Part shown: positions 3,389 to 41,537 of the stretch, one piece after another
Numbering within the stretch: position 1 is the stretch's first letter
How the letters are laid out: each line of letters opens with the position of its first letter
Origin: a virus
Length of the DNA: 41,698 nucleotides
Strand: one strand, 5' to 3'
IMG/VR virus record: IMGVR_UViG_3300048927_000267
Coordinates: 1-41,698 of that record
Notes under the pieces: generated by a model
The model's input: the letters and a program-made list of their open reading frames with translations, nothing else
Databases searched by the model: none
What the model was told of the DNA's origin: nothing
Translations under genes and position numbers: made by a program

Positions 3389-5860
3389 TTAGAAGCTGCG
3401 CCATGTCTCGACCCACACAGTGCCGCGCCGCTCGAATTCGATGCTCTGGCTTTCGGTGATGGAGACATTGGCCGCGCCCCGGCACGAAAGGCCGTCCGTC
3501 CCCGTTCCATGCTGGATGAAGAAGCCGCCCACGCCACCAATCAGGCGCAGGATCTTGCCTTCCACCGAAGGCCCTGTGATCGTCGCAAGGACTTCCGCAG
3601 CCGTCCGGGTGATGGAGAAGGTGTTGCCCACCCTTCCATTGATGCTGAACGTGGTGGCGCCGCCCAGCGCAACACCCTCGCGATATCCGCGGAAGCCGGG
3701 GCCCGTCCAATCGACGAACTGGTCATTGGCCAGCGCCGACGAGTAGAGCTTCCCGCTGATCGAACCCAACGGCACGAGATTGCGGATCCGCGGGATATTG
3801 GAAAAGCTCGAGCTTTCGTTTCGGACCAGGTTGGTGACCATCCCGTTCGAGACGTCGATATCGATGTCCCTGATCTTGGGCATCGTCGCGCCAGTCGACC
3901 GCAGCCAGATCGCATGGTTAGCTGCCCCAATCTTGTTGATTTCCTTGGCGGTGCCGTTGCGCAGCGTCGGGTTAACCGCGTTGGGGCCGCCGCTATAGAG
4001 AGGACCATAGGAACTATCGATCGTGAAATTCTTGATCGTGTTGTTGACGCCCTGGTCTAGGAATGTGCCCTGGAAGGCCCAGTTCGTCGTCCCGTCATCG
4101 CCCCAATTGTTGCCGCGACCATAGAAGCCGTCGACAACACATTCCTCGGCGCTCTCGGTCGGCCCCTTGTAGAGCGCGACGGCCGAGCCGAGGCAGTCGA
4201 TCGCACCGCAGGCCGTCATGATGACGCTGTTGCAGCGGGCGGAAAAGCCGACATGCATGCCGCCGATCGTCCAGAGGTCATGGAAGCGCTGGCCAAAGCC
4301 GAGCTGGTGCGTATCCCAGCCGGCCAGCTTCGCGTCCTGGTGCGTGCCATGGGCGACGACCGCGCCGACCGGGCGGCCCACCGTAAAGATGTAGCTCCCC
4401 CCATTGGTGTAACCGTGACGGATCCGGCGATAGCGCGAGCCGATCACGACCAGCCCGGTATTCAGGCCGCGCTCGGAAACGCCATAGCCATAGCCGCCGA
4501 ACCCGTCTGTCGCGGTGCCGTCGGACGCGGTCGCATTGCCGAAGTCATAGGCCTGGTGCCCCATGACAAGGGCATCGATGCAGCCTTCCAGGGCGATCCC
4601 GGCGCCGATGCTGTCGCGCATGCGGACATTATGGAACAGCGGCGCCAGGGCAAAGCGCGTGGTAATGACCTGGCGCGCTTCGGTCAGCGGGTCAGCGCCA
4701 CCGACCGGCGCCACCGATCGATCCATGAGGCAGGTAAAATCGCTGTAGACAAGCCCCTCTGTCAGCGTGACGGGGATGAGCTCTGGCAGATCCCCGATCA
4801 GATAATCGTCAGTCAGCGGCCCATAGAGCGTGATGGTGGCGCCCGAAATCGACTTGATCCGGACATATTCACCCTTGAGCTGCGGATCGAAATTGGGCGT
4901 GTCGTAATAGGCCTGGCTGGCGATGATCGCATAAGTATCAACTGCGAAATTCGCCGCATGAGCGACGTTCGACAGCGTGATCGTCGTGGAATGCAGTGGC
5001 GCGTTGTTGAGGTAATAGCCCTGCCGGACGGGCAGCGTGTAGCTGTTGGCGAATAGTGAGCCGGCCCCGACCTTCTTGAACACCGTTTCCCGGCCGACCC
5101 CGCGAAAGGTCGCACCAGGATTGATGAGCGAACCGGCAACCGTATAGGTTTCGCCAAGGCCATAGCAGCCAACGCCCTCAGAGCGAGCAGCCGCCAGGGC
5201 AGCGATAATGGCATCAGTGTCATCGATGGCAGGGCTGGCGCGGGCGCCGAAGTCGCGGAGGCACAGGCGGTCGCCCAGCTTTTCGCCGACATTGCGATCC
5301 GCGGAATAGCCGATCAGCGCAGCCCCGATCAGCCGGTTGGCCAGATCGGTGCGCAGGCCGGCGTCGGCCCCGGTGCCGCTGGACTGGATGGGCTGGCCGT
5401 CGGGGCCGAAGGCAAGGAACTTGCCGGCACGCGATGCCGCCGACGGCAGGACGTTCGACTGCTCGCCATCGGGAACCAGCAAGGCCCGCGCCGTCGTGTC
5501 GTCAATGCGATCGTCCTGTTCCTGGTCGATCATCATCGCGCGATCGAGCGCGCTTTCATGGCTGGCCGCGGGGAAGCGATCGGAGTTGGTATATTCCGCG
5601 ACCTGCGTGCGCAGGGTGCTGCGCCGGATCCGCAGGCGCGCACCCGCAACACTTGCCCCCAGCGTCAGGGCGCCGCCGCTATCAGTCCCGCCGCCCGTGA
5701 CAGAGAAATCGACATCCTCGGCGAGCGGCAGCACCGTTCCGTCGGCCAAAACACGGGTGACCGCCAAGGCACCGGACAGGAAGCGGAACGGCACCGCAAA
5801 GGTCAGCGTCACCCCATTTTCGAGATAATTGATATTGGACGGCAGCGATGCGACGGTCAT
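3389..5860 (-). CDS. Tailspike with pectate-lyase-type beta-helix
   Basis: An 823-residue protein. The first 170 or so residues (MTVASLPSNINYLENGVTLT onward) match the usual N-terminal particle-binding module of podovirus tail fibres and spikes. A DFGAR motif near residue 200, followed by DDTDAIIAALAAA, marks the start of a Pectate_lyase_3-type right-handed beta-helix. The Gly/Asn/Asp-rich body has repeated short beta motifs. Such spikes bind and often cleave surface polysaccharide of the host. It stands where T7 has gene 17. The stop lies 41 bp before the lysis cassette and the start overlaps the preceding virion gene by four bases. The catalytic site cannot be named from sequence alone. Confidence 0.85.
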   Translation of the reverse strand: MTVASLPSNINYLENGVTLTFAVPFRFLSGALAVTRVLADGTVLPLAEDVDFSVTGGGTDSGGALTLGASVAGARLRIRRSTLRTQVAEYTNSDRFPAASHESALDRAMMIDQEQDDRIDDTTARALLVPDGEQSNVLPSAASRAGKFLAFGPDGQPIQSSGTGADAGLRTDLANRLIGAALIGYSADRNVGEKLGDRLCLRDFGARASPAIDDTDAIIAALAAARSEGVGCYGLGETYTVAGSLINPGATFRGVGRETVFKKVGAGSLFANSYTLPVRQGYYLNNAPLHSTTITLSNVAHAANFAVDTYAIIASQAYYDTPNFDPQLKGEYVRIKSISGATITLYGPLTDDYLIGDLPELIPVTLTEGLVYSDFTCLMDRSVAPVGGADPLTEARQVITTRFALAPLFHNVRMRDSIGAGIALEGCIDALVMGHQAYDFGNATASDGTATDGFGGYGYGVSERGLNTGLVVIGSRYRRIRHGYTNGGSYIFTVGRPVGAVVAHGTHQDAKLAGWDTHQLGFGQRFHDLWTIGGMHVGFSARCNSVIMTACGAIDCLGSAVALYKGPTESAEECVVDGFYGRGNNWGDDGTTNWAFQGTFLDQGVNNTIKNFTIDSSYGPLYSGGPNAVNPTLRNGTAKEINKIGAANHAIWLRSTGATMPKIRDIDIDVSNGMVTNLVRNESSSFSNIPRIRNLVPLGSISGKLYSSALANDQFVDWTGPGFRGYREGVALGGATTFSINGRVGNTFSITRTAAEVLATITGPSVEGKILRLIGGVGGFFIQHGTGTDGLSCRGAANVSITESQSIEFERRGTVWVETWRSF

Positions 5861-8445
5861 TGCATGGTCTCCCCGAACATGTCTGTTAGGTCAGGGGCGC
5901 GATCCGGTGCCGTCTCACCGGGAGCCCAGAAATAGGGTTGGCCGAGCTTGGCGGCTGCACGTTCCGACCGGCTCCAGCTCAATGGGTAATTGGGGTCCGC
6001 CAGCTTCTGAAGCTGGTCGAACAGCAGCCGGTCGGCGACCAACTGCGAATACCAGATGTTTTGGCCTGGGATCATGTCGCGCCCTTGCCGATAGGCCTCC
6101 GCACCGATGTTCGTATCCACCTCTTTGCCATCAGCCATCTGATCGAATGCCTGCCCAGCGTTTCCACCGATCAGATTGATTGACGGGTCTACGATGCTAC
6201 CGATCGTCGGCCCCGCGGCATAACCCAGCACCGTGCCACCCGTGCGGCTGCGTCCGCCCAGCCCAGCCTGAATGAAATCGCCCGCCATTCCCGCGCCGCC
6301 GCCCTGCATGAACGCAGCGGCCCACGTGCGAGGATCATCCCACTTGGGAGGATCCTTTCCAGCAAGGATACCCTTGGCTGTCAGCACAGCCATGCCGCCT
6401 AACGTCAGGAACAGCGGCAACGTCAGGCCGTAGGCACTCCGGCTCATGCCGCCCCGTCCATAAAAGAACCGCTGCCAGTGCGTCATGAGTGCGATGACGG
6501 AGTAAGTTTTGAACTGAGTACCTGACCGCACCAGCTCGCCGATCACCGTGCCGCGCTCCACCGTCATTGCGCCGCCGAATGTTTCCACGGCGGTGGACGC
6601 ACGCAGGCTCTCGCCCGGAACGCCAAACCGCGTCTCGCTGTCGATCATCTCGCCGATCCGGACAGCGGCATCAAACGCGCGATCGGCATCGACGTCCGTG
6701 CGCGAAGCGACATCCCCGGCACGGATCATCTTCACGCCGTCCTGATCGGTGACGGGCGTATTACGGATCACGTCCCAGCCGTCCGCATCGATGCCATAGC
6801 GTTCGAACCGCAAGCGATCGGCATTGTCCAGTTTCGCCCAAGGCTTGGCCGCATGATCGGCAAAGTCCATCATGAAACTCAGACCGATCGCCTGCTTTGC
6901 GGCTTGCGTGTGGGGGGCAAGCAGCGATGCATCCATGACCGCGCTGGCGGCACGACGCGATGCTTCATGCAGGTTCAGGCGCATCGCCTCACCCTCGCGC
7001 CACATCTGCTCGGTCCGTACCGTCATCTCATTGAAAACCAAGCCAGCGTGTCGCGCCGCTGCCCGGCCGTCCGGCCCCGCCATCGCGCCAAAATAATTCC
7101 GCGTCATTTTCGCGACATCCAGCCCATTGAACTTGGCCGTCATGCTTCCGAAAACAGGATCACTTCCCAACGCCGAGATGGTGGCGCCACCCAACTTCGT
7201 CGCGACATTCCAGTTGCGCAGGCCTGAGAAGAACCGGGCAGTCCCACGGTTATCGGGCGACGGCATAGCCAACGCCCCGGTATACATGCGCCACATCCGG
7301 TCAGTCGTTTTAGCGGCCTTTGCGGCTTTTTTCTCCAGCTTCACCGCCTTGCCGCCTTTGGGCGTGGGCAGGGCATCCTGCCGGAGCACGTCGCCCAGCC
7401 ACCGCACCGTCAGCGCCGGATTGGGGCCAAGGATTTGCATCGCCGCTATCTCGCGGGTCATTCCGTCGATATGGCCGGTAATGGCCTCGAACGGACCACC
7501 CATGCCGAACCGCTCATTGTAGGCCAGCCAGTCGTCGGCAGATTTAAATTGCAGGAAACGATGGTCGGCCCGGCGGTTCGCCATCTTGCCCGATCCGCCG
7601 GGCATGCCGGGCGTGACCTTATCCAGCCCCTGGCTGGTGATCGTATCCCATACATCGTCCAGAACTTCGCTCAGCCGCTCGGCCGAAAAGGGCAGGCCGT
7701 TGTCATGATCGATCATCCGCTCCGCATCGAGCAGGGGAGTGATGAATTCTTTCCACGGGTCGCGCTTCGCCTTGGCGATGCTCAACGCGTCATGGCTTTG
7801 CGGCAGGCCCCAGCGATCCAGCTTGGCGATACTGCCGCCCGCCTCGTTGAACATCTGGCGCAGCCATTCGAATGTGTCGGTGACGGCCGCTGCAATGCCC
7901 TTCGCATCAGCGCTATCGACCTTCTCACCCTTCAAAGCGCGAACGACATCGGCCATATCCACGTCGCCACCCATCAGTCGGGACAGCTTGCCGCCCATGT
8001 CGCGGCTGAATTTATCCATGAACCCGCCCATGCGCTGCCACGCCATCTGGCCCAGCGAAGCGCGGCGATTGTCGATGTTGGAGATACCCGGTACCGCTTC
8101 GTGATGATCCAGCAGGGCGATGGCGAACTGCCCGGCCTTGCCATGGCGGCTGATCCTGTCAGCGATCGCGTTAGTCCGGGTCGGGTTCCTGACGTAGTCG
8201 GTCAGCTTTTCAAGGATATCCTGCTGTGTCCGGATTTGCAGCAGCTTCTGTCGCCGGTTATTGACCGCCTGAAATTCCAGCGCGTCCATCGCATCCCGCG
8301 AAGCCGCGTCGATCGCGCCGATCTCGCCCAGAACCTTCGCATGGGCGGAACGCAGCCGTTCATATTCGGCCTCGAACCGTTCCGCCCGCTTGGCGTCGAT
8401 GACGCCCTGTTCCTGCAATTGGGCCAGACATACGGCAAAGCTCAT
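5857..8445 (-). CDS. Large internal virion / DNA-ejection protein
   Basis: An 862-residue, largely helical protein with a strongly coiled N-terminus (residues 1-100), Ala- and Gly-rich middle, and a hydrophobic segment near residues 655-685 (YGLTLPLFLTLGGMAVLTAK) that could insert in a membrane. It lies between the transglycosylase-type virion protein and the tailspike, the place of the large core/ejection protein in T7-like phages. I infer that it is packed in the capsid core and helps move DNA into the host. It carries no enzymatic motif I can name. Start at ATG 8445, overlapping the small upstream gene by ATGA. Confidence 0.65.
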   Translation of the reverse strand: MSFAVCLAQLQEQGVIDAKRAERFEAEYERLRSAHAKVLGEIGAIDAASRDAMDALEFQAVNNRRQKLLQIRTQQDILEKLTDYVRNPTRTNAIADRISRHGKAGQFAIALLDHHEAVPGISNIDNRRASLGQMAWQRMGGFMDKFSRDMGGKLSRLMGGDVDMADVVRALKGEKVDSADAKGIAAAVTDTFEWLRQMFNEAGGSIAKLDRWGLPQSHDALSIAKAKRDPWKEFITPLLDAERMIDHDNGLPFSAERLSEVLDDVWDTITSQGLDKVTPGMPGGSGKMANRRADHRFLQFKSADDWLAYNERFGMGGPFEAITGHIDGMTREIAAMQILGPNPALTVRWLGDVLRQDALPTPKGGKAVKLEKKAAKAAKTTDRMWRMYTGALAMPSPDNRGTARFFSGLRNWNVATKLGGATISALGSDPVFGSMTAKFNGLDVAKMTRNYFGAMAGPDGRAAARHAGLVFNEMTVRTEQMWREGEAMRLNLHEASRRAASAVMDASLLAPHTQAAKQAIGLSFMMDFADHAAKPWAKLDNADRLRFERYGIDADGWDVIRNTPVTDQDGVKMIRAGDVASRTDVDADRAFDAAVRIGEMIDSETRFGVPGESLRASTAVETFGGAMTVERGTVIGELVRSGTQFKTYSVIALMTHWQRFFYGRGGMSRSAYGLTLPLFLTLGGMAVLTAKGILAGKDPPKWDDPRTWAAAFMQGGGAGMAGDFIQAGLGGRSRTGGTVLGYAAGPTIGSIVDPSINLIGGNAGQAFDQMADGKEVDTNIGAEAYRQGRDMIPGQNIWYSQLVADRLLFDQLQKLADPNYPLSWSRSERAAAKLGQPYFWAPGETAPDRAPDLTDMFGETMQ

Positions 8446-8633
8446 CCGGTTCCCCCATCGTCATTGTCGGCATCCCGCACGAAAGCGGCGATCCGCTGGC
8501 GATCTGCGATCGCAGCCACCTTCGCCACGATGCTTTCCATGGCATCGACCGACACGCCTTCGCGCCACGCCATCGCGCGCGCCGCCGCCAGCAATTCGCT
8601 GTTGCTGCTGTGGATCATGGGGACCGTCGCCAT
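8442..8633 (-). CDS. Small unknown protein between antirepressor and virion gene
   Basis: A 63-residue soluble protein, two predicted helices with an acidic Gly-rich tail (DADNDDGGTG). The start at 8633 overlaps the BRO-N gene stop as TGATG; a longer frame upstream only overlaps that gene and lacks a ribosome site. Its stop overlaps the start of the 862-residue virion gene. Function unknown. Tight coupling to both neighbours suggests co-translation. Confidence 0.6.
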   Translation of the reverse strand: MATVPMIHSSNSELLAAARAMAWREGVSVDAMESIVAKVAAIADRQRIAAFVRDADNDDGGTG

Positions 8634-9364
8634 CAGAACATCTCCCCGCGCAGGGAGGCCGGGCGCTGGAACACCCGCGCCGTCTGATGCTTCGCGATCT
8701 TCTTGTTGATCGGGTTCCAACCCCACATTTTGAGCAGCTTCCCGATCCGATACCGGGTCGGCCAGTCGATATCCTGCAACCCGATGCCGTCTGCGGCCTG
8801 CTGAATGGTCGTTTCCGCGCGACCCTCCAGCCAGATTTTCAGGGGATCGGCCAAAGGGTCGCCGCTATGATCCCCCTCCGCATCGGCGATAACCGGGGGC
8901 AGGCCGACCTGCACCCACAGGTTGCGCGCCGCCTGCGGCCCGAACAGCCGCCGCGCCTCCCGCACGACGCTGACCCCGGCGAGCAGCCGGGGCGGGTCGA
9001 GATCGGCCGAAACCATCGGCGGCGGGTCCATGTCGTGCATGACATAACGGCCCGTGCGGCGAAGCTCGGGCAGCACCTCAGCCGTGACCCATTTGCGGAA
9101 CCGCTCCGCCTCTTCCTTCCGGCTCTTGAAGATCGCGGCGTACATGCCGCTCTCCGAGACGATGCTCATTTCCTGCGGCGAGGAGGGGGTACTCACAATA
9201 TGAGTACCCCTCTCATCCTCATGCAGATTGCGGACCATGTTGCCCGCATCGCGATAGCCCAGCGCCTTCGCCAGATCGCTGGCGACGAACCACGGGTCGC
9301 CCGCGATCATGACGACGCGGACGGGATCTTCTTCGAACTGATATGAAACAAGCGCAGTAAGCAT
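8633..9364 (-). CDS. BRO-N domain antirepressor-like protein
   Basis: A 243-residue protein. Residues about 1-105 show the BRO-N pattern: IAGDPWFVASDLAKALGYRD, then a NLHEDE segment, SESGMYAAIFKSRK and FRKWVTAEVLPELRRTG. BRO-N domains bind DNA and occur in prophage antirepressors. The C-terminal half is helical and may bind DNA or a partner. The start at 9364 has GGAG seven bases upstream. It is out of place, inside the late virion operon between two internal-protein genes, with its own upstream region (9365-9625) and a divergent membrane gene. I read it as a moron that could counter a repressor of a resident or competing phage. Confidence 0.85.
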   Translation of the reverse strand: MLTALVSYQFEEDPVRVVMIAGDPWFVASDLAKALGYRDAGNMVRNLHEDERGTHIVSTPSSPQEMSIVSESGMYAAIFKSRKEEAERFRKWVTAEVLPELRRTGRYVMHDMDPPPMVSADLDPPRLLAGVSVVREARRLFGPQAARNLWVQVGLPPVIADAEGDHSGDPLADPLKIWLEGRAETTIQQAADGIGLQDIDWPTRYRIGKLLKMWGWNPINKKIAKHQTARVFQRPASLRGEMF

Positions 9365-9371
9365 GGACGAT

Positions 9372-9553
9372 CTCCAGTAGAAATCGTCCGACCACAGCTG
9401 ACCAATAGCTTGGTGGCCGGACGTGCCATGATTGGTCTTACCGCCTACTGGAGCGGCGCCCCCGAAGGAGCTCACGACACGCCCGACCATAAAAATCCGC
9501 GCCCACACTGGGCGTGTGGCGCGGGCTGCGCCAGTAGATACAGGGAGACCAAT
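9372..9553. promoter_or_regulatory. Composite repeats in the divergent BRO-N / membrane-gene region
   Basis: Three copies of a two-part element lie in the 261 bp between the divergent genes. CCAGTAG at 9374-9380 pairs with GACCAAT at 9400-9406. The inverse ATTGGTC (9431-9437) pairs with CTACTGG (9445-9451). A further CCAGTAG (9531-9537) pairs with GACCAAT (9547-9553). The first two copies form a nested inverted repeat, extended to CTCCAGTAG/CTACTGGAG. A GC-rich near-palindrome lies at about 9495-9525. These look like operator sites for control of the cassette; the binding protein is unknown, possibly the BRO-N product itself. Confidence 0.5.
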
Positions 9554-9625
9554 CCCTTGTCTGGATTTTGCCAGACGCCGCCCGCTATACTCGCCCTCGA
9601 CTCGACGAGCAAGGGGGGCTGCTCG

Positions 9626-9886
9626 ATGCTGATTTTTCTCGGATATTTGTTCTTCTGCGGAACGCAGATCGACAGCCTGTCGCGCTTTGCCTTTGGCTAC
9701 CTGCTCGCGGCGGCCACAGGCTGGGCGTTTGCCGCTGTCTATGTGAACACTGGCGGCCAACTTTACCCGCTGCCGATCGCAGCCACGGCCGCGTTCTGGT
9801 TTGCTTGGTTTTCGGCATTCTACGCTGCGGGTTGCGCCTTTGTCCGTTGGCTGCGCAGGCGATCCGCAAGACGATTGCAGGAATAG
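9626..9886 (+). CDS. Small membrane protein, opposite to the late operon
   Basis: An 86-residue protein with two to three membrane segments (start MLIFLGYLFFCG; FGYLLAAATGWAFAAVYV; AATAAFWFAWFSAFYAAGCA) and a strongly basic tail (RWLRRRSARR). A purine-rich ribosome site (AAGGGGGG) lies seven bases before the ATG at 9626. It is transcribed against the late operon and ends two bases from the stop of the 780-residue virion gene. Divergent placement with the BRO-N gene suggests one inserted cassette that may be expressed in the lysogen. Possible roles such as superinfection exclusion are speculation. Confidence 0.7.
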   Translation: MLIFLGYLFFCGTQIDSLSRFAFGYLLAAATGWAFAAVYVNTGGQLYPLPIAATAAFWFAWFSAFYAAGCAFVRWLRRRSARRLQE

Positions 9887-9888
9887 CA

Positions 9889-12231
9889 TCACAGGCACCC
9901 CCTGATCGCCGCGAGCGCCGCATCTTCCGCGTCCAGTTCGGCCAGGATGACCGTCGCGCTTTCGGGCAGCGCCACCGCCGACCCGTTGCGCTCGACAATG
10001 CCGGAGGCGGCGAAGGTCAGGCCGTCCAGGTGCCCGGCGTCGATCGACGCCTTGATGTCATGGCCCAGCGTCATTGCCTGCTCGATCGGGGCGGACCCCG
10101 CCGGATCGGCGAACCGCGCCGCCCCGCGCGCGGGCAGCGGGTCGGCACCGCCCATCGATGCCGCCGCCGGTTCGGGCGCGGCCATCCGCTCGACCGGCGC
10201 GCGCGGCGCGGTGACCGCCTCGATCGCGCGCTCGACCCGGCGGACGCGACGGCTGTTGACCAGCGCAGCGCCCGCGGGCGTCAGGTCGCCCGTGCCGCTC
10301 AGCGCATCGACGGCATAGCCCTCATCTTCCAGCGCGTCATACAGGCGCGTGGCCACGCCCTGCCGCCGAAACTCCGGCTGCACGAAGCTTCTCACCTCGG
10401 GGAAAGTCTCGCGCGCCTCGGCCGTGATCGGATATTGCACCGCGCCCCGCGCCACCCCGTCCGCATCGCGGAACACCGCCGTCGCTAGCTGGCCGTCTTC
10501 GACCCGCACCGATATGCCCGGCTCGCCGCGCGCGGGCTGAAATGTCAGGATGGAGGCGGGGCCTAGTCCTTCATCGGGCGCGGCGTCCTGCGCCACCGTC
10601 GCCCGCACGAACTCGGGCTTGCTGTCCACTTCGGCGATCAGCAGCCGGGGATCGATCCCCAGCATCTCCGCCTCATCCGCCGCCTGCGCCACCCGCCACG
10701 TCGCCTCATCGGGGAACAGATCGCGCCGCAGGTCGGGCAGCACCGGCTCATCGGGCAGGTCGGCCCATTCGGCAGGCGCGATATCGTCAGCCATGGCGGG
10801 CAGTTCGGCGGACCGCACCGGCCCATCCTCTATCCCGGTGCGCCGCCGGAAATTCTCGACATAGGCGCGCGTTTCGGCGGGGAGATATTTCTCCCAATTA
10901 TCCGGCTCGCCCGCGCGCGCCGCCCGCGCCATTGCGCCGCGCAGCCCTTTGCCGCTGCGGGCGCTGCCGGGACCTGCATTATAGGCTGCGGCAGCCTTGG
11001 CCGGGTCGCCAAACGTATCCAGCTGCTTTTTGAAATAGGCTTGGCCCAGCGCCTCATTATAGGCGTGTTCGCTGCGATAGCGGGCGTCATCCCATGGCAG
11101 CCCCGCCAGTTTCGCCGCCTCCTTTGCCGTGCCGGGCAGAACCTGCGCCGGGCCGATTGCACCCTTCGGACTGGTCAGGAACCGGCCCTGCTTATCGGTA
11201 CCGCCCTCATTGCCGATGATCGCCCGCCACATCGTCGCCATCGGTGGCGGCGCAACGGGGCGGGCCGGAGAGGGGACGGCGCCCCCCTCAATCCGGTCCG
11301 CCGCCGCGCGCAGGCCCCGCTCCATACGCGTAAAATGCGCATGGTCCCCCGCCGGGCCGCGAACATAGGGACTCGCATCGGCGATATTTTCTGTCCGCTC
11401 GATCACATTGACGGCGGCGCGCTCATCGGGCGTCCAATTCTCCTCCGGCACGACCTTGCGGAAGGCGTCGACCGTCGCGCGATCGGACAGGTAGAGGTGC
11501 GCGCCCTTGCCGATCGCGCCGCCCACAAAGCCAAAGCCGCCCTGCGCCGCCACATCGAACGCCGTGTCGCCCGGGGTCCGCTCGACGCCGAGCCGTTCCG
11601 CTTCCTTGCGCACGAACGGCTCGGCCGCGATCGCCGCGCCCGCATTGACCGCGCCCTCTTTCAGACCGGTCATGATGATCTGCCGCGCCGCGCCGCCCGC
11701 CGCGCCGCCGACCGGGATGAAGGCCGTCAGCCATGTCTCTGGATCGTCCCAGCTCGCGCCGATCGCGCCGATGAAGGAGCCGACCTTGCCCATGCCGGTC
11801 AGCCGCTCGGCTGAGAGGCTGGCCTTCTCCATGTCGGCCCGCTGCCGCACCGTCGCCGCCGCCGTCAGGCTGGCGTCGTCATGCACATCGTCATGGCCCT
11901 TGATGAGGCCCTTCGCCCGCGCATCGGCCAGCGCCCGCCAGAATTGCTGGCTGCGCTGATCCTTGCCATTGCCGCCGAGCGTGGCCATCGCCTCGCTTGT
12001 CAGGCCGAAATCGCCATAGCCGCCCTTGCGCAACTGGCCTGCGAGATCGCGATATATGTCCGTGCGATAGCGGATGCCGTTCGATCCGGTATCCGGCCCC
12101 GTCTGCGCGACATTATAGCCCACGCCGATGCCGCCAAAGAAACCGGTGTCCTTGGGGGCCTCGGCGATCGGCGTCGGGCTGGGGCGGACCTCTACGCTCC
12201 AATCACCGCGAGGATTGCGGGGGTCCGTCAT
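9889..12231 (-). CDS. Internal virion protein with lytic transglycosylase and GNAT-like regions
   Basis: A 780-residue protein. A soluble lytic transglycosylase (SLT/goose-lysozyme type) domain spans about residues 330-430: MWRAIIGNEGG with the catalytic Glu, KGAIGPAQVLPGTA, then AAAAYNAGPG. This activity in T7 gp16 opens peptidoglycan during DNA entry. A second region at about 575-660 reads like a GNAT acetyltransferase, with the acetyl-CoA loop FRRQGVATRLYDALE. The rest is Ala/Gly-rich, with a hydrophobic Gly/Ala part at 150-250. The start is ATG 12231, overlapping the upstream stop (ATGA); a GTG four codons earlier is less likely. It occupies the position of T7 gene 16. Confidence 0.85.
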   Translation of the reverse strand: MTDPRNPRGDWSVEVRPSPTPIAEAPKDTGFFGGIGVGYNVAQTGPDTGSNGIRYRTDIYRDLAGQLRKGGYGDFGLTSEAMATLGGNGKDQRSQQFWRALADARAKGLIKGHDDVHDDASLTAAATVRQRADMEKASLSAERLTGMGKVGSFIGAIGASWDDPETWLTAFIPVGGAAGGAARQIIMTGLKEGAVNAGAAIAAEPFVRKEAERLGVERTPGDTAFDVAAQGGFGFVGGAIGKGAHLYLSDRATVDAFRKVVPEENWTPDERAAVNVIERTENIADASPYVRGPAGDHAHFTRMERGLRAAADRIEGGAVPSPARPVAPPPMATMWRAIIGNEGGTDKQGRFLTSPKGAIGPAQVLPGTAKEAAKLAGLPWDDARYRSEHAYNEALGQAYFKKQLDTFGDPAKAAAAYNAGPGSARSGKGLRGAMARAARAGEPDNWEKYLPAETRAYVENFRRRTGIEDGPVRSAELPAMADDIAPAEWADLPDEPVLPDLRRDLFPDEATWRVAQAADEAEMLGIDPRLLIAEVDSKPEFVRATVAQDAAPDEGLGPASILTFQPARGEPGISVRVEDGQLATAVFRDADGVARGAVQYPITAEARETFPEVRSFVQPEFRRQGVATRLYDALEDEGYAVDALSGTGDLTPAGAALVNSRRVRRVERAIEAVTAPRAPVERMAAPEPAAASMGGADPLPARGAARFADPAGSAPIEQAMTLGHDIKASIDAGHLDGLTFAASGIVERNGSAVALPESATVILAELDAEDAALAAIRGCL

Positions 12232-14159
12232 TTGCCGTTCCACGAGAAATAGACGGTGAAGTCGGTGCCATCCTTCGCCTTCAGTGCGCGCCCAGCGCTA
12301 TCGACCATCGCATATCGATCGCCGCCAACATTGACGGGCGTGTAGTAGCGACGGATTTCGGCGGCGGAGACGGTGCCCCCGCTCGAATGTGCACCCGTCA
12401 TATTGCGTCGGGAGAACTCTCTATCGAAATCTTCCTGGCTCATCCTGTAGGGAAGGACGATCTTCTTGCCGTTCCACTCTCCGACGCCGCCCTGTTTCAC
12501 CCCGTTGCGCGCCCAGGTGCCGCCTAGTGCGCGGTGCAGTGCTTCATCCCAGATTTCGTCTGTGAGCGCCTTTGCTCGCCTTTCAACGACAAGCGTATCG
12601 GCGATGCCTTCGACCGCTTGCTTAACACCGAGCTGATAGTCGACACCCATCTGAACGAGAGCACCACCGACGCTGCGCCCGAACTTGGTATCCAGCAGGG
12701 ATGGCGTGACCGCGCCGGGATTGATTTTCCCCGCCGCCTCGCCGCGCAGGAGCAAGGCGCGGGATTGGGGCGTGAGCGTCGTCGCGACAATCATCAACCG
12801 GTTGCCGGGGTCGACCTGCCGAGCCGCCGCCATGGCTGCGCCGGTCGAGAAGTGCGCCAGCGCGTCGGCGACCTTGATCTGCCCGGCGAGGCCGCTTTTC
12901 GCCAGCGCCTGATACCGCTCGACATCATCCGGCCCGAGCGGCTGCGGCACCGCCAGCCCGCGGCGCTGCGCGTCGGCGACCGCATCCCGCTCGCGCTGCG
13001 CGAAGCTGGCAGGGTTGGCATCGTCCAGCGCCGAGGCATAATTCGGCTCGGCCTCGCGCATTTTCGTCCGCAGCGTGTCGAGCTGCTCATGCTCGGTCAC
13101 CAGATCAGGCTTGCTCCGCCAGTCGGCGGTGCGCTCGATCACACCCATGCGCTGCGAAATCTGCCCGGCATCAGCATTGCCGTCGCCATATCGAGTGTTG
13201 ATCTCCGCCTTCACCGCGCTGGCGCGGAAGGTATAGGCGCGATCGGGCTTACCCTCTGCCTCCGCTCGCTCCGCCGCTGCGCGCAGCGCGTTGGGATCGA
13301 CGGCACCCCCATCATCCGCCTGCAATTTTAGCGCATCTTCCGCGTTGGTAGCGAGTTGGGCTTGCTCGCGCGCCACCCGCTCGCCCGCAATCCTCTGGCG
13401 ATCGATGGCGGCATCAGCGCCGTTGCGCAGGGCGCGCATCTGGTCGGGCGAAACCAGATCATCGAACTGCCCTCTGTCGAGCAACACCTTGAGGGCAAGC
13501 GGGTTTTGCTCTCGCATCCCGCCAGCGAAGCCGAGCGCCGCCGCCTGCTCCTTATAACGCAGTATCTTTTCCTGCACATCGGCAGAAAGCCCGGTCATTG
13601 CCGCCACGCCCTGACGTGCAAATTCCAGCTCTTCCCGGAACTTGCTAGGGTCAGGGTCACGCTGGAGCCGGTTGCCGACAATATCGGCCGCCGCTTGATG
13701 ATCGGCCACCATCTTGCCGATGCGCGCACCCTGCTCATATTCATAGGCCGAGCCGCGCGCGCGCGCGCCGAACTGCGCCATCTGCTCGCGGGCGCTGTTA
13801 ATCAGGCGTGTCTCGGTCAGTCCCTTGACAAGCTCGCTACTCTCGGCCTCCCAAGCATCGCCAATGGCTTGAGCATGCCCAGCGCCACCGGGAGCAGGCG
13901 AGTTGCGCAGATCGAGGGACAGCTTGTCCATGCGCTCGCGCGCGGCAGCGAAGCGCGCATTGAAATCGGCGGCCTCCTGATCGGCTTTCTGCTGTCTCTC
14001 GATCTGATAGGCCGATATTTTGGCGCGGTGCAGGCTGTCGCCGACCCGCCCGATGGCCGCGCCCACATCGGCGCCAAAGGCGTCAGCGTTGGCAGAGGGC
14101 AGGGCCGCCGAACGGCCAGGGCCGGACTGCTGCTGATAGCCGCGCTCCTCAATAGCCAT
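12228..14159 (-). CDS. Internal virion protein (gp15 position)
   Basis: A 643-residue, highly helical, Ala/Gln/Arg-rich protein with long coiled-coil stretches (residues 50-330) and a more globular C-terminus. No enzymatic motif is visible. It lies between the gp14-like and the transglycosylase-type proteins, the position of T7 gene 15, whose product forms part of the internal core and the DNA-ejection conduit. The start at 14159 overlaps the upstream gene by 11 bases; a frame opening upstream at 14225 overlaps more and begins with a low-complexity Arg/Ser stretch, so I prefer the shorter form. Confidence 0.68.
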   Translation of the reverse strand: MAIEERGYQQQSGPGRSAALPSANADAFGADVGAAIGRVGDSLHRAKISAYQIERQQKADQEAADFNARFAAARERMDKLSLDLRNSPAPGGAGHAQAIGDAWEAESSELVKGLTETRLINSAREQMAQFGARARGSAYEYEQGARIGKMVADHQAAADIVGNRLQRDPDPSKFREELEFARQGVAAMTGLSADVQEKILRYKEQAAALGFAGGMREQNPLALKVLLDRGQFDDLVSPDQMRALRNGADAAIDRQRIAGERVAREQAQLATNAEDALKLQADDGGAVDPNALRAAAERAEAEGKPDRAYTFRASAVKAEINTRYGDGNADAGQISQRMGVIERTADWRSKPDLVTEHEQLDTLRTKMREAEPNYASALDDANPASFAQRERDAVADAQRRGLAVPQPLGPDDVERYQALAKSGLAGQIKVADALAHFSTGAAMAAARQVDPGNRLMIVATTLTPQSRALLLRGEAAGKINPGAVTPSLLDTKFGRSVGGALVQMGVDYQLGVKQAVEGIADTLVVERRAKALTDEIWDEALHRALGGTWARNGVKQGGVGEWNGKKIVLPYRMSQEDFDREFSRRNMTGAHSSGGTVSAAEIRRYYTPVNVGGDRYAMVDSAGRALKAKDGTDFTVYFSWNGK

Positions 14160-32452: not shown

Positions 32453-32827
32453 ATGTCAGCAGAAGTCTTACATTTTCGTCCCATGACGGAGATGCCGAAC
32501 AGGATCAGGGAGTTGCGCATGGCGCGTGGCTGGTCCCAAGACCAGCTTGCGGCGCGTGTCGGTTGTTCGAAGCCGCAGATCAGTGACCTCGAACGCGGCA
32601 ATCGCGGCCTCGATCTGGACTGGATGCGGCGCCTTGCTGACGCTCTAGGCGTCCTGCCCGCGCATCTCCTCAGTGACCATGACAACCCCGAACGTCTGAC
32701 GGACGAGGAACGGGCATTGATCTGGCGCTACAGAGATATGCCGGCTGGTGAGCGAGAAATGCTGGAGCGCGTCGCGGACGTTCGTCCGGCTTATCGTGAG
32801 CAGCCGAGGGATAAGAACGCCGCCTAA
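32453..32827 (+). CDS. XRE-family phage repressor candidate
   Basis: A 124-residue protein. The HTH is textbook: MPNRIRELRMARGWSQDQLA, ARVGCSKPQISDLERGNRGL, then DWMRRLADALGV. The C-terminal part (DEERALIWRYRDMPAGEREM) is helical and resembles the dimer region of short XRE repressors; there is no LexA-type peptidase domain, so induction would not be by RecA-driven self-cleavage. It starts at ATG 32453 or possibly at 32483. The next two genes follow directly, the first overlapping the stop (TAATG). The operators at 32396 and 33415 flank this gene block. Confidence 0.85.
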   Translation: MSAEVLHFRPMTEMPNRIRELRMARGWSQDQLAARVGCSKPQISDLERGNRGLDLDWMRRLADALGVLPAHLLSDHDNPERLTDEERALIWRYRDMPAGEREMLERVADVRPAYREQPRDKNAA

Positions 32828-33022: not shown

Positions 33023-33376
33023 ATGCGCAAATTGATGACGATCTCAATCGTGGCATGTTTAGCCGCTTCTTCGCCGCTCTATGCTGGCGATCGGTTTGAT
33101 CGCGCCAAGGCTGCCAATGACACGTGGGAGAAATGCGTCATCGGTCAAGCTGTCATTCTGAAAGATCAAACCTCGCCTTACAACGCCGTGGAAGCGGCTT
33201 TCGGCCGCTGCGATGAGGCGGAGCAGTCTTTCCGCTTTGAACTAAAGCGCTGGTCGAAGGGGCCTCTCGGCGCATTCGGGTCATCAGCCTCACCGCGCCG
33301 CTTGGATGAGATGCTGGAGCAGGAGCGCGAACGGATACGTCGGCGCGCGACCTCTGAAATGTTCATAGGTCGCTGA
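33023..33376 (+). CDS. Secreted protein in the immunity operon
   Basis: A 117-residue protein with a signal peptide (MRKLMTISIVACLAASSPLY, cleavage near AGD at about 21-23). The mature part is charged and helical, with two cysteines (Cys in WEKCVIG and in GRCDEAE) about 30 residues apart that could form a disulfide in the periplasm. It begins one base after the membrane-protein gene. Third gene of the repressor unit; likely periplasmic, possibly a partner of the membrane protein. Function unknown. Confidence 0.68.
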   Translation: MRKLMTISIVACLAASSPLYAGDRFDRAKAANDTWEKCVIGQAVILKDQTSPYNAVEAAFGRCDEAEQSFRFELKRWSKGPLGAFGSSASPRRLDEMLEQERERIRRRATSEMFIGR

Positions 33377-39413: not shown

Positions 39414-40796
39414 ATGGCAAAAATCGACATACCCGGCCTGGTCATCAAGCGCCGGGACAAGAAACTCTATCACTACTGGCAGCCATCGGCGACGCTGAAA
39501 CGGGCGGGCTGGCAGTCGGTCCCTCTCGGCACGGATCCACGCGCCGCACAACGCGCTGCCGAGCAGCAGAACGACAAGGTCGCCGAATGGCGCGCCGGCG
39601 GCGCTGCGCCGCGCACCGTCAAGAAATTCATCAAGGGCGGCACCGTCGACCAGCTGATCGCCCGCTACATCACCGATCGCTTCCCCGAACTGGGCGAGAA
39701 GACCCGCAAGGAATATCGGACCAAGCTGAACATCATCCAGCGCTGGGCGGGCGCCGAGCAGGTGTCGCACATCGACCGCAAACGCGTCCGCAAATTGAAG
39801 GAAGTATTGCTGCGCCCCGACAAGGATGGCGTGGTGAAGCTGCACCGCGCCGCCGGCGCAATGCGCGTCCTGAAAACCCTGCTCGAATTCGCGATCGACG
39901 CGGGCTTTCTGCCCGAAGACACGCGCAATCCCGCGTCCAACCAGAACATGCCCACGCCGCCGGCGCGTGCGCACATCTGGTCGCAGGCCGCGATCGACGC
40001 CGTGACCGCTGCGGCTATCGAGGAGGGACAGCCCGGCGCCGCGCTCGGCATCCGCCTCGGCCGCGAGATCGGCCAACGCGAGGCCGACATCCTGAAACTG
40101 GTCATCAGCCGATGGATCGAGATCCCGCGCCATAAGCTCAACCCCGAAGATTGGGACGCCCTGGCCGAGCCAAGCATCAATGGTCCGAGCGTCTGGGGCG
40201 TTCGCCTGCGGCAGGGTAAGACCAACCGCTGGGTCGAAATCCCGCTGGTCGGCCAGACCAGGCGCTTGATGGAAACGGCGATCGCCGAGGCGAAGGCCAT
40301 GGGCACGACCGTCATTCTGCATGAAATGGCGATCCCGCAGGAATTTCGCGACGTGACGCAGTTCGAACGGCACTTGGCGCGCTCCTATGCGCGAGAGACC
40401 GGCCGCATCGCCACGCCCGAACAGATCGAGCAGATGGTGCGCGAGGGCTATGTGCCCCGCCCATGGACAGAAACCCGCTTCCAGCGCGCGATTGCCCGCA
40501 TCCGCGACAAGGCGGCCGAGCAGGCCCGAGCCGCCGGCGACGAGGAACTGGCGGCCGAGATCGAGACGGTCGAATTCCGCGACCTGCGCCGCACCGCCGT
40601 CGTATCCCTGGGCGAACTCGGCATCGAGGACCAACTCATCGCCGCCATCACTGGCCACCAGCTGGACCATACCAAGAAGATCCTCGAAACCTACATGCCC
40701 CGCACGACCAAGATGGCGGGCAGGGCGATCGCGCTCCAGCAGGAACGCAGCAACGTCACGCCGATCGACCGGAGCAAGCAGGCCGATGGGCGTTAA
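39414..40796 (+). CDS. int: Tyrosine-family integrase
   Basis: A 460-residue tyrosine recombinase. Residues 1-60 form an arm-binding-type front part, about 75-175 the core-binding helical domain, and 190-440 the catalytic domain. Catalytic residues: Arg222 in GQREADIL, Arg392 in FRDLRRT (Arg stands at 389 where His is usual), His415 in GHQ and the nucleophile Tyr427 in ETYMPR. It directs recombination at the tRNA-Gly core. The gene lies near attR, as is usual. A long insertion around 235-375, before the second Arg, makes it larger than lambda Int (356 residues). Confidence 0.92.
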   Translation: MAKIDIPGLVIKRRDKKLYHYWQPSATLKRAGWQSVPLGTDPRAAQRAAEQQNDKVAEWRAGGAAPRTVKKFIKGGTVDQLIARYITDRFPELGEKTRKEYRTKLNIIQRWAGAEQVSHIDRKRVRKLKEVLLRPDKDGVVKLHRAAGAMRVLKTLLEFAIDAGFLPEDTRNPASNQNMPTPPARAHIWSQAAIDAVTAAAIEEGQPGAALGIRLGREIGQREADILKLVISRWIEIPRHKLNPEDWDALAEPSINGPSVWGVRLRQGKTNRWVEIPLVGQTRRLMETAIAEAKAMGTTVILHEMAIPQEFRDVTQFERHLARSYARETGRIATPEQIEQMVREGYVPRPWTETRFQRAIARIRDKAAEQARAAGDEELAAEIETVEFRDLRRTAVVSLGELGIEDQLIAAITGHQLDHTKKILETYMPRTTKMAGRAIALQQERSNVTPIDRSKQADGR

Positions 40797-41462: not shown

Positions 41463-41500
41463 AGCGGGTGTAGCTCAATGGTAGAGCAGCAGCTTCCCAA
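41463..41500 (+). repeat. attR: attR core
   Basis: The right copy of the 38-bp direct repeat, identical to 90-127. It supplies the 5' half of the tRNA from the phage, joined to the host 3' half. The base before it (41462) and the bases after the CCCAA of the anticodon loop differ from attL, which fixes the core limits. Confidence 0.93.
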
Positions 41501-41537
41501 GCTGACGACGGGGGTTCGATTCCCCTCACCCGCTCCA
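41464..41537 (+). tRNA. tRNA-Gly (anticodon CCC)
   Basis: A 74-base cloverleaf with the acceptor stem GCGGGTG pairing with CACCCGC, D-arm GCTC/GAGC, anticodon loop TTCCCAA (anticodon CCC), T-loop TTCGATT, discriminator T and an encoded CCA end. The first pair of the anticodon stem looks like a G-A mismatch. It resembles E. coli tRNA-Gly(CCC). After integration its 5' half and upstream DNA are phage-derived, so its promoter must lie in phage DNA; a possible -10, TATCTA at 41442-41447, is the only candidate seen, without a good -35. Confidence 0.95.

What the first reader, a model, noticed from the sequence alone, without database searches (positions are those of the whole stretch)
8633..9886. 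BRO-N and membrane-gene cassette inserted in the virion operon
A DNA-binding antirepressor-type gene and a divergent membrane gene sit between two internal virion genes and share a 261-bp control region. Everywhere else in the late operon genes overlap or nearly touch. This looks like a self-contained acquired unit, perhaps acting against other prophages.
Basis: partly seen in the sequence, partly recalled or inferred. Interest (0 to 1): 0.58.

Follow-up and report, generated by a model that had tools for sequence, protein, structure and literature searches.

The report
Roaming RNA-controlled antirepressor cassette with cargo
Between two virion genes of a temperate phage sits an inserted immunity cassette, a prophage-switch protein kept silent by a small antisense RNA and paired with an exchangeable gene for a small membrane or secreted protein, which recurs at several different places in related phages.

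Summary
It holds a C4 antisense RNA (Rfam RF01695, 56 bits, cut-off 45), preceded by an isrK-like leader (below cut-off) and a terminator. Both antisense segments of C4 have two complementary sites each, one pair over the BRO-N ribosome site and one pair in the leader. These covary across 28 related modules (0 of 10,000 permutations in four tests). So the cassette is a P1/P22-style secondary immunity ("immI", "ant moron") unit. It is an insertion: the two closest virion relatives lack C4 and BRO-N in their whole records and have the flanking genes overlapping by 4 bp. Other phages carry the module at four further junctions. In 22 of 27 modules a divergent gene starts 122-151 bp before C4 and encodes a small, mostly unrelated, membrane or secreted product (chance 1.4%). 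The control logic is known; the roaming C4-BRO-N form with a fixed-geometry slot for envelope proteins is a new variant of the P22 ant moron. Action on other prophages, and exclusion by the divergent protein, are plausible but untested.

The parts
8446..9888 (.). whole inserted block between the 784-aa and 862-aa virion genes (1,443 bp)
   Evidence: The two closest virion relatives have these genes overlapping by 4 bp; 46 of 67 relatives show -4 and 56 of 67 at most 30 bp
8633..9364 (-). BRO-N domain antirepressor-type protein, 243 aa
   Evidence: Pfam PF02498 6e-23, PHROG 130 anti-repressor Ant 2.5e-45
9409..9494 (-). C4 antisense RNA
   Evidence: Rfam RF01695, 56.2 bits, gathering 45; folds at -47.7 kcal/mol, z -5.9
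9445..9453 (-). C4 loop b' (CUCCAGUAG), complementary to the BRO-N ribosome site
   Evidence: Sequence; covariation
9430..9438 (-). C4 segment a' (AGACCAAUC)
   Evidence: Sequence; covariation
9372..9381 (-). downstream target b2 (UCUACUGGAG), covers the Shine-Dalgarno of BRO-N, in a hairpin
9400..9406 (-). downstream target a2 (AUUGGUC); read by eye, not the script's top hit in this locus
   Evidence: sequence; the class of sites is significant
9492..9577 (-). isrK-like leader (sub-threshold)
   Evidence: Rfam RF01394 32.7 bits, gathering 50, E=1.8e-5 for a 401-base search
9546..9554 (-). leader copy a1 (GAUUGGUCU) of the C4 a' target
9531..9537 (-). leader copy b1 (CUACUGG) of the C4 b' target; read by eye, not the script's top hit in this locus
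   Evidence: sequence; class of sites significant
9500..9514 (-). intrinsic-terminator-like stem followed by a T-rich tail, between leader and C4
9584..9612 (-). candidate promoter TTGCTC-17-TATAGC of the leader/C4/BRO-N transcript
   Evidence: weak consensus (7 of 12), but 26 of 29 listed modules have a top-two candidate with the -35 at -113 to -120 from C4; not called by the stricter scan
9626..9886 (+). divergent small membrane-protein gene, 86 aa (cargo)
   Evidence: start 132 bp from C4, as in other modules; homologue in L012; AlphaFold model helical, pLDDT 72.5, pTM 0.42
8442..8633 (-). 63-aa ORF coupled to BRO-N and to the 862-aa virion gene
   Evidence: no PHROG match
9889..12243 (-). 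flanking virion gene, 784 aa, SLT transglycosylase domain
5857..8445 (-). flanking virion gene, 862 aa, PHROG 684
32453..32827 (+). phage repressor candidate, 124 aa, HTH only: possible partner of the antirepressor
   Evidence: Pfam HTH_31 4.8e-16, no non-HTH domain; PHROG transcriptional repressor

Best explanation
The cassette is a secondary-immunity (immI-type) moron. A promoter near 9584-9612 transcribes leader, C4 RNA and BRO-N as one RNA. In a lysogen the C4 RNA is cut out of this transcript and pairs through two short segments (a', b') with the region just before and over the BRO-N ribosome site, so no antirepressor is made. The leader carries decoy copies of both target segments just before a terminator; a short leader RNA can therefore titrate C4 and release BRO-N. 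BRO-N then inactivates the phage repressor (probably the 124-aa HTH protein) and favours lytic growth. A resident C4 also silences an incoming ant mRNA of the same specificity, while an incoming phage of another specificity escapes and can induce residents. The divergent gene, whose start lies 14 bp upstream of the candidate -35, makes a small membrane or secreted protein, most likely a lysogen-expressed, superinfection-exclusion-type factor that is swapped among phages. Shown here: the C4 match, the paired and covarying segments, the insertion, the roaming positions, the fixed-distance divergent envelope-protein genes. Inferred from P1/P22/Gifsy knowledge: processing, silencing, titration, repressor inactivation, exclusion.
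For: C4 above the Rfam gathering score in the window and in L003, L004, L005. An own C4 model finds 54 matches in 86 loci, all on the BRO-N strand. Own antisense/target pairings beat all 10,000 permutations in four tests on 31 unique C4s and again in 28 modules of the window's type (z 11.0, 7.4, 7.6, 7.7). The BRO-N ribosome site lies in a hairpin whose loop region is the b' target. Empty sites: L153 (56% identity in the 862-aa protein) and L154 (51%) have no C4 and no Bro-N in their whole records. Five junctions in one gene order. Divergent envelope-type ORF in 22 of 27 modules against 1.4% at 10,800 random anchors. A family used as divergent cargo in L013 occurs in the window beside the repressor gene (E=6e-16). 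Precedents: P22 immI inside the late operon between genes 16 and 9, with sieA (PMC8022706); the 'ant moron' with ten types in sixteen P22-like phages (PMC2629481); C4 blocking ant translation in P1/P7 (PMC12197685; PMC5320573); IsrK activating anrP translation in Gifsy-1 (PMC4825925).
Against: No expression or functional data. The isrK match is below its gathering score. In the window itself the best-scoring a2 and b1 hits of the script are elsewhere; the expected sites are read by eye. The candidate promoter is weak by consensus and not called by the scan. No cargo protein matches a known exclusion or defence family. A divergent gene is not general for C4: of 14 modules of this C4 sequence type without a detected BRO-N only 2 have one (1 envelope-type), and most C4 loci from the genome draws have none.
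Confidence: 0.85

Rival explanations
1. The BRO-N gene is a core late gene of this phage type, and the gap is an ordinary promoter region for downstream late genes.
For: BRO-N, the 63-aa ORF and the 862-aa gene overlap by a few bases, so late transcription could carry them together.
Against: Only 1 of 80 loci with a relative of the 862-aa protein has a C4 within the fetched segment, and 3 of 80 have a BRO-N; closest relatives lack both in whole records; other phages carry the module elsewhere. The 80 loci are a pattern-limited sample: L012 and L013 carry the gene and the module but were not among them.
Confidence: 0.03
2. The C4 RNA has changed its partner and now mainly regulates host genes, as proposed for Acinetobacter C4-like sRNAs; BRO-N is a passenger.
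For: C4-like RNAs possibly acting on host mRNAs are proposed in A. baumannii (PMC5320573, passages); several genomes carry 8-10 C4 copies.
Against: Both antisense segments of the module match sites at the BRO-N ribosome site and covary with them.
Confidence: 0.04
3. The divergent small proteins are not exclusion factors but regulators or partners of the switch (for example tethering the repressor or antirepressor, or a reversible growth inhibitor like P1 icd).
For: Fixed geometry, with the start 14 bp from the candidate -35, suggests coupled expression. P1 immI also carries icd (recalled; the gene name is in a reference title).
Against: Products are mostly unrelated to each other, including secreted proteins that would leave the cytoplasm, which fits an exchangeable envelope function better than a conserved partner.
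Confidence: 0.3
4. The divergent ORFs are chance ORFs on the strand opposite the leader region.
For: The window ORF has no family match and modest GC3 (0.678).
Against: Divergent ORFs with ribosome sites occur in 22 of 27 modules against 6.8% at random anchors, and all 22 are envelope-type; window and L012 products are homologous, as are L237/L242 and L234/L240/L268. One of the 22 (L266, 383 aa) does look spurious.
Confidence: 0.04

Closest known systems
P22 immI / 'ant moron' of P22-like phages (sieA, mnt, arc, ant, sar RNA between gene 16 and tailspike gene 9)
   Same: Antirepressor unit inside the late operon among injection/tailspike genes, own control, antisense RNA on ant, exclusion gene alongside, highly variable between phages (PMC8022706, PMC2629481, passages read)
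   Different: Control by C4 plus isrK-like leader; no Arc/Mnt match among the ORFs scanned; BRO-N antirepressor; divergent gene unrelated to any named family; module found at five junctions, not one
Phage P1/P7 immI operon (c4, icd, ant)
   Same: C4 RNA acting on the antirepressor mRNA; a'/b' segments, b' over the ribosome site (PMC12197685, PMC5320573 passages)
   Different: Late-operon location; BRO-N protein directly behind C4; divergent cargo gene
Gifsy-1 isrK-orf45-anrP locus
   Same: isrK leader with terminator, complementarity between leader and downstream RNA, antirepressor behind it (PMC4825925 passages)
   Different: The term 'C4 RNA' does not occur in that paper; that its processed STnc1160/orf45' RNA corresponds to C4 is my inference. 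The window's isrK match is below cut-off
Weinberg 2010 motifs 'c4 antisense RNA' and 'c4-a1b1'
   Same: Apparently the same pair of elements, C4 and upstream a1/b1 sites, listed in a table (PMC2864571, passages)
   Different: c4-a1b1 is listed there for gammaproteobacteria and phages; no cargo slot in the passages seen
Pseudomonas phage PAJU2 antirepressor locus
   Same: C4 directly before a BRO-N gene (L069)
   Different: On the strand opposite to the late genes, next to an O-antigen acetylase gene

Membership tests
C4 antisense RNA (RF01695) | Covariance-model score above the curated cut-off | tested here: met
   56.2 bits against 45
C4 antisense RNA (RF01695) | Segments a' and b' complementary to the leader of an antirepressor mRNA, b' over its ribosome site | tested here: met
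   b' pairs with UCUACUGGAG at the BRO-N ribosome site; covariation 0 of 10,000 permutations in 28 modules
C4 antisense RNA (RF01695) | Processing by RNase P to a ~77-nt RNA | not testable with these tools
   The GGW cleavage motif named in PMC5320573 is present at the start of the stem (AUGGUCGG), by eye
isrK RNA (RF01394) | Score above the curated cut-off | tested here: not met
   32.7 bits against 50; E=1.8e-5 in a 401-base search. It looks and may work like isrK but is not filed as a member
BRO-N antirepressors | Bro-N domain | tested here: met
   PF02498 81.7 bits against 25.6
BRO-N antirepressors | Inactivation of a phage repressor | not testable with these tools
   Only a candidate partner of 124 aa with HTH and no other kind of Pfam domain
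P22-type ant moron / immI | Insertion in the late operon, absent or different in relatives | tested here: met
P22-type ant moron / immI | mnt and arc repressor genes | tested here: not met
   None of the module's three ORFs matches an Arc/Mnt family; the 261-bp region is occupied by the RNA elements
P22-type ant moron / immI | Superinfection exclusion gene | tested here: inconclusive
   A divergent membrane-protein gene is there, but no match to any named exclusion family

The most novel reading that the evidence does not exclude
The C4-BRO-N unit is a portable platform with a defined cargo slot. A divergent gene starting 122-151 bp from C4, its ribosome site abutting the ant promoter, accepts mostly unrelated small membrane and secreted proteins that guard the lysogen's envelope against superinfection. 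Because the two transcription units start back to back, cargo (exclusion, lysogen) and antirepressor (induction) may be expressed in opposition, so one RNA-controlled switch decides between defending the resident prophage and inducing it. The slot would then be a marker for finding new exclusion proteins.
Probability: 0.35. Interest if true: 0.7.

Novelty: new variant of a known kind. Interest (0 to 1): 0.5.

Why it matters
If true, it ties together three classical cases (P1 C4, P22 immI with sieA, Gifsy isrK) in one portable layout. It also gives a sequence handle (C4 + BRO-N + fixed-distance divergent start) to collect many small uncharacterised envelope proteins that are likely anti-phage factors, and it predicts immunity groups from the two C4 segments alone.

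Tried and rejected
Core late gene with an ordinary promoter: rejected by empty sites and varied positions. C4 loci of other types as evidence for the cargo rule: tested and not supporting it. Across 60 unique C4 loci only 15 have a divergent ORF in a looser window and 8 of these are envelope-type; 6 of the 8 are copies already in the viral set (L089-L092, L095, L097), the other two are L125 and the doubtful L135. The rule is therefore a feature of the window's type of module. An earlier version of that script ignored strand and is not used. Relatives of the 86-aa membrane protein in IMG/VR by peptide patterns: none. Structure prediction of the 86-aa protein: helical, pTM 0.42, not used further. 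The 117-aa secreted protein gave a fair model (pLDDT 82.5) but no PDB match with E <= 0.001. PADLOC: no match for 10 proteins. Host of the phage: not determined; the 862-aa protein resembles those of SPN1S-type podophages and others at 27-36%. One search counted L208 as a BRO-N locus without C4; its whole record does hold a C4 elsewhere, so only the fetched segment lacks one. The regular expression missed the BRO-N gene of L246; it was counted there as non-BRO and is included. L018/L252 has BRO-N and C4 but no divergent gene.

Full report
What is there. On the minus strand a BRO-N gene (8633-9364) and on the plus strand a divergent 86-aa ORF (9626-9886) lie between a 784-aa SLT-domain virion gene and an 862-aa PHROG 684 virion gene. 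Their starts are 261 bp apart. A further 63-aa ORF (8442-8633, -) sits between BRO-N and the 862-aa gene and overlaps both by a few bases. The window is a 41,698-base virus record with an integrase-type gene (39414-40796, PHROG integrase 1e-16), an HTH repressor candidate of 124 aa (32453-32827) and a tRNA-Gly near its right end, so it looks like a temperate phage.

The control region is an RNA switch. Folding of 9360-9630 (-) gave a z-score of -6.9. Rfam identifies C4 antisense RNA at 9494-9409 (-) above its cut-off, and an isrK-like element just upstream below its cut-off. C4 in P1/P7 is an antisense RNA that silences the antirepressor mRNA; its loops a' and b' pair near and over the ribosome site (PMC12197685 and PMC5320573, passages). 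In the window, loop b' (CUCCAGUAG) is complementary to the BRO-N ribosome site (CUACUGGAG), and a' (AGACCAAUC) to a site shortly behind C4; both have second matching sites in the leader before a terminator-like hairpin.

Test of the pairing. For 31 unique C4s found by an own model in 86 loci (54 matches) I scored contiguous pairing of each C4's segments with its own and with all other loci's target regions. Own pairings exceeded every one of 10,000 permutations for b'/downstream, a'/downstream, b'/upstream and a'/upstream. The same four tests on 28 modules of the window's sequence type gave z = 11.0, 7.4, 7.6 and 7.7, again 0 of 10,000. In single loci the top-scoring hit is not always the expected site; in the window this is so for a2 and b1, which I read by eye. 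Relatedness between loci is not modelled, but shared ancestry would raise the off-diagonal scores as well.

It is an insertion. In relatives found by the 862-aa protein (80 loci) the junction with the upstream gene is tight: 46 of the 67 loci with a callable upstream gene have exactly -4, and 56 of 67 at most 30 bp (12 of 80 were dropped because the match did not reach the gene start, and 1 had no upstream gene). The two closest, L153 and L154 (56% and 51% identity), have the genes overlapping (L002 is the same contig as L154) and no C4 or Bro-N anywhere in their records. Only 1 of the 80 loci has a C4 in the fetched segment, and it is the contig of L005. These 80 are a pattern-limited sample: L012 and L013 have both the gene and the module and were not among them.

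It roams. I placed modules against the window's gene order. Of 20 distinct modules (window and 19 others) 16 could be placed: between the 784- and 862-aa genes in window, L004, L012 and L013; between the 862-aa gene and the tail spike in L005, L016 and L268; between the 173- and 665-aa genes in L241 and L251; behind the portal gene in L267; beside the primase/terminase boundary in L003, L262 and, on the opposite strand to the terminase-side genes, L014, L015, L234 and L265. L235, L244, L246 and L252 could not be placed. Pairwise identity of BRO-N (56-76%) and of the 862-aa protein (32-45%) is uncorrelated over 15 pairs of 6 loci (r = -0.09), as expected if the module moves on its own.

The divergent gene is a cargo slot. 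A pattern scan of IMG/VR for this type of C4 gave 42 loci. With the window there are 43 unique copies. In 28 a BRO-N motif follows within 420 nt. Of the 27 with at least 300 bp upstream, 22 have a divergent ORF of at least 50 aa with a ribosome site starting 118-153 bp (observed 122-151) before C4, and all 22 products have a hydrophobic segment typical of membrane or secreted proteins by a simple hydropathy rule. At 10,800 random anchors in the same loci 6.8% have such an ORF and 1.4% an envelope-type one. One of the 22 (L266, 383 aa) looks spurious. Among 14 copies without a detected BRO-N, 2 have a divergent ORF and 1 is envelope-type (that one, L246, does have a BRO-N that the motif missed). 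The products are mostly unrelated. All-against-all comparison links L234/L240/L268 and L237/L242, and a single comparison links the window to L012 (E=1e-5). The family of the L013 cargo also occurs in the window as a 117-aa secreted protein beside the repressor gene (E=6e-16), which suggests that such proteins belong to the lysogenic state. A candidate promoter for the ant transcript sits at -113 to -120 from C4 in 26 of 29 listed modules (among the two best candidates; one of the 29 is a duplicate). The cargo start in the window lies 14 bp beyond it, so the two transcription units start back to back.

How it most likely works. Constitutive C4 made from the leader transcript keeps BRO-N untranslated in the lysogen. 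The leader RNA, which holds decoys of both targets, can titrate C4, much as IsrK activates anrP in Gifsy-1 (PMC4825925, passages). Released BRO-N inactivates the repressor, which has no kind of domain beyond its HTH in Pfam, so an antirepressor may be the route to induction. The late operon runs through the module in the same direction and meets the terminator before C4; in P22 read-through of the ant moron is discussed as a way of setting tailspike level (PMC2629481, passage). Silencing, titration, repressor inactivation and exclusion are inferred.

What is known and what is new. [quoted passage not shown]). Ten types of "ant moron" were counted in sixteen P22-like phages (PMC2629481, passage). 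C4 and a motif named c4-a1b1 are listed by Weinberg et al. (PMC2864571, passages), and C4 next to isrK is annotated in Xylella (PMC12189769, one passage). My searches for C4 with Sphingomonas prophages (none), C4 RNA with IsrK (one review), exclusion with antirepressor and moron (ten papers) and C4 with superinfection exclusion, BRO-N or antirepressor (six papers, of which I read passages of two, PMC12197685 and PMC8546580) did not bring up a description of the cargo slot; the library holds only open-licence papers and I read passages, not whole texts. I therefore call it a new variant of a known kind.

Noticed in passing
window 33023-33376 (+): 117-aa secreted protein directly behind the repressor gene and a 64-aa membrane-type ORF; homologous to the divergent cargo of the L013 module. 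Same protein family in two lysogeny-linked places.
   Followed up: partly
L235/L240 (one IMG/VR record, G002 8868-8954 and 42872-42955): One 45-kb phage record carries two C4-BRO-N modules, each with its own divergent envelope-type gene and different antisense segments.
   Followed up: no
The genome search draws: C4-like RNAs in 36 of 398 genomes of one phylum draw and 35 of 394 of one order draw; single genomes with 8 to 10 copies (G139, G246, G295, G319).
   Followed up: no
window 9500-9514 (-): A terminator-like hairpin now interrupts the late operon ahead of the 862-aa virion gene and tail spike; late expression downstream would need read-through.
   Followed up: no
L208, record G748: BRO-N gene on the opposite strand behind the 862-aa homologue without C4 nearby, plus a second Bro-N and a C4 elsewhere in the record.
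   Followed up: no
window 41464-41537 (+): tRNA-Gly (CCC) at the right end, 667 bp behind the integrase-type gene: possible attachment site.
   Followed up: no
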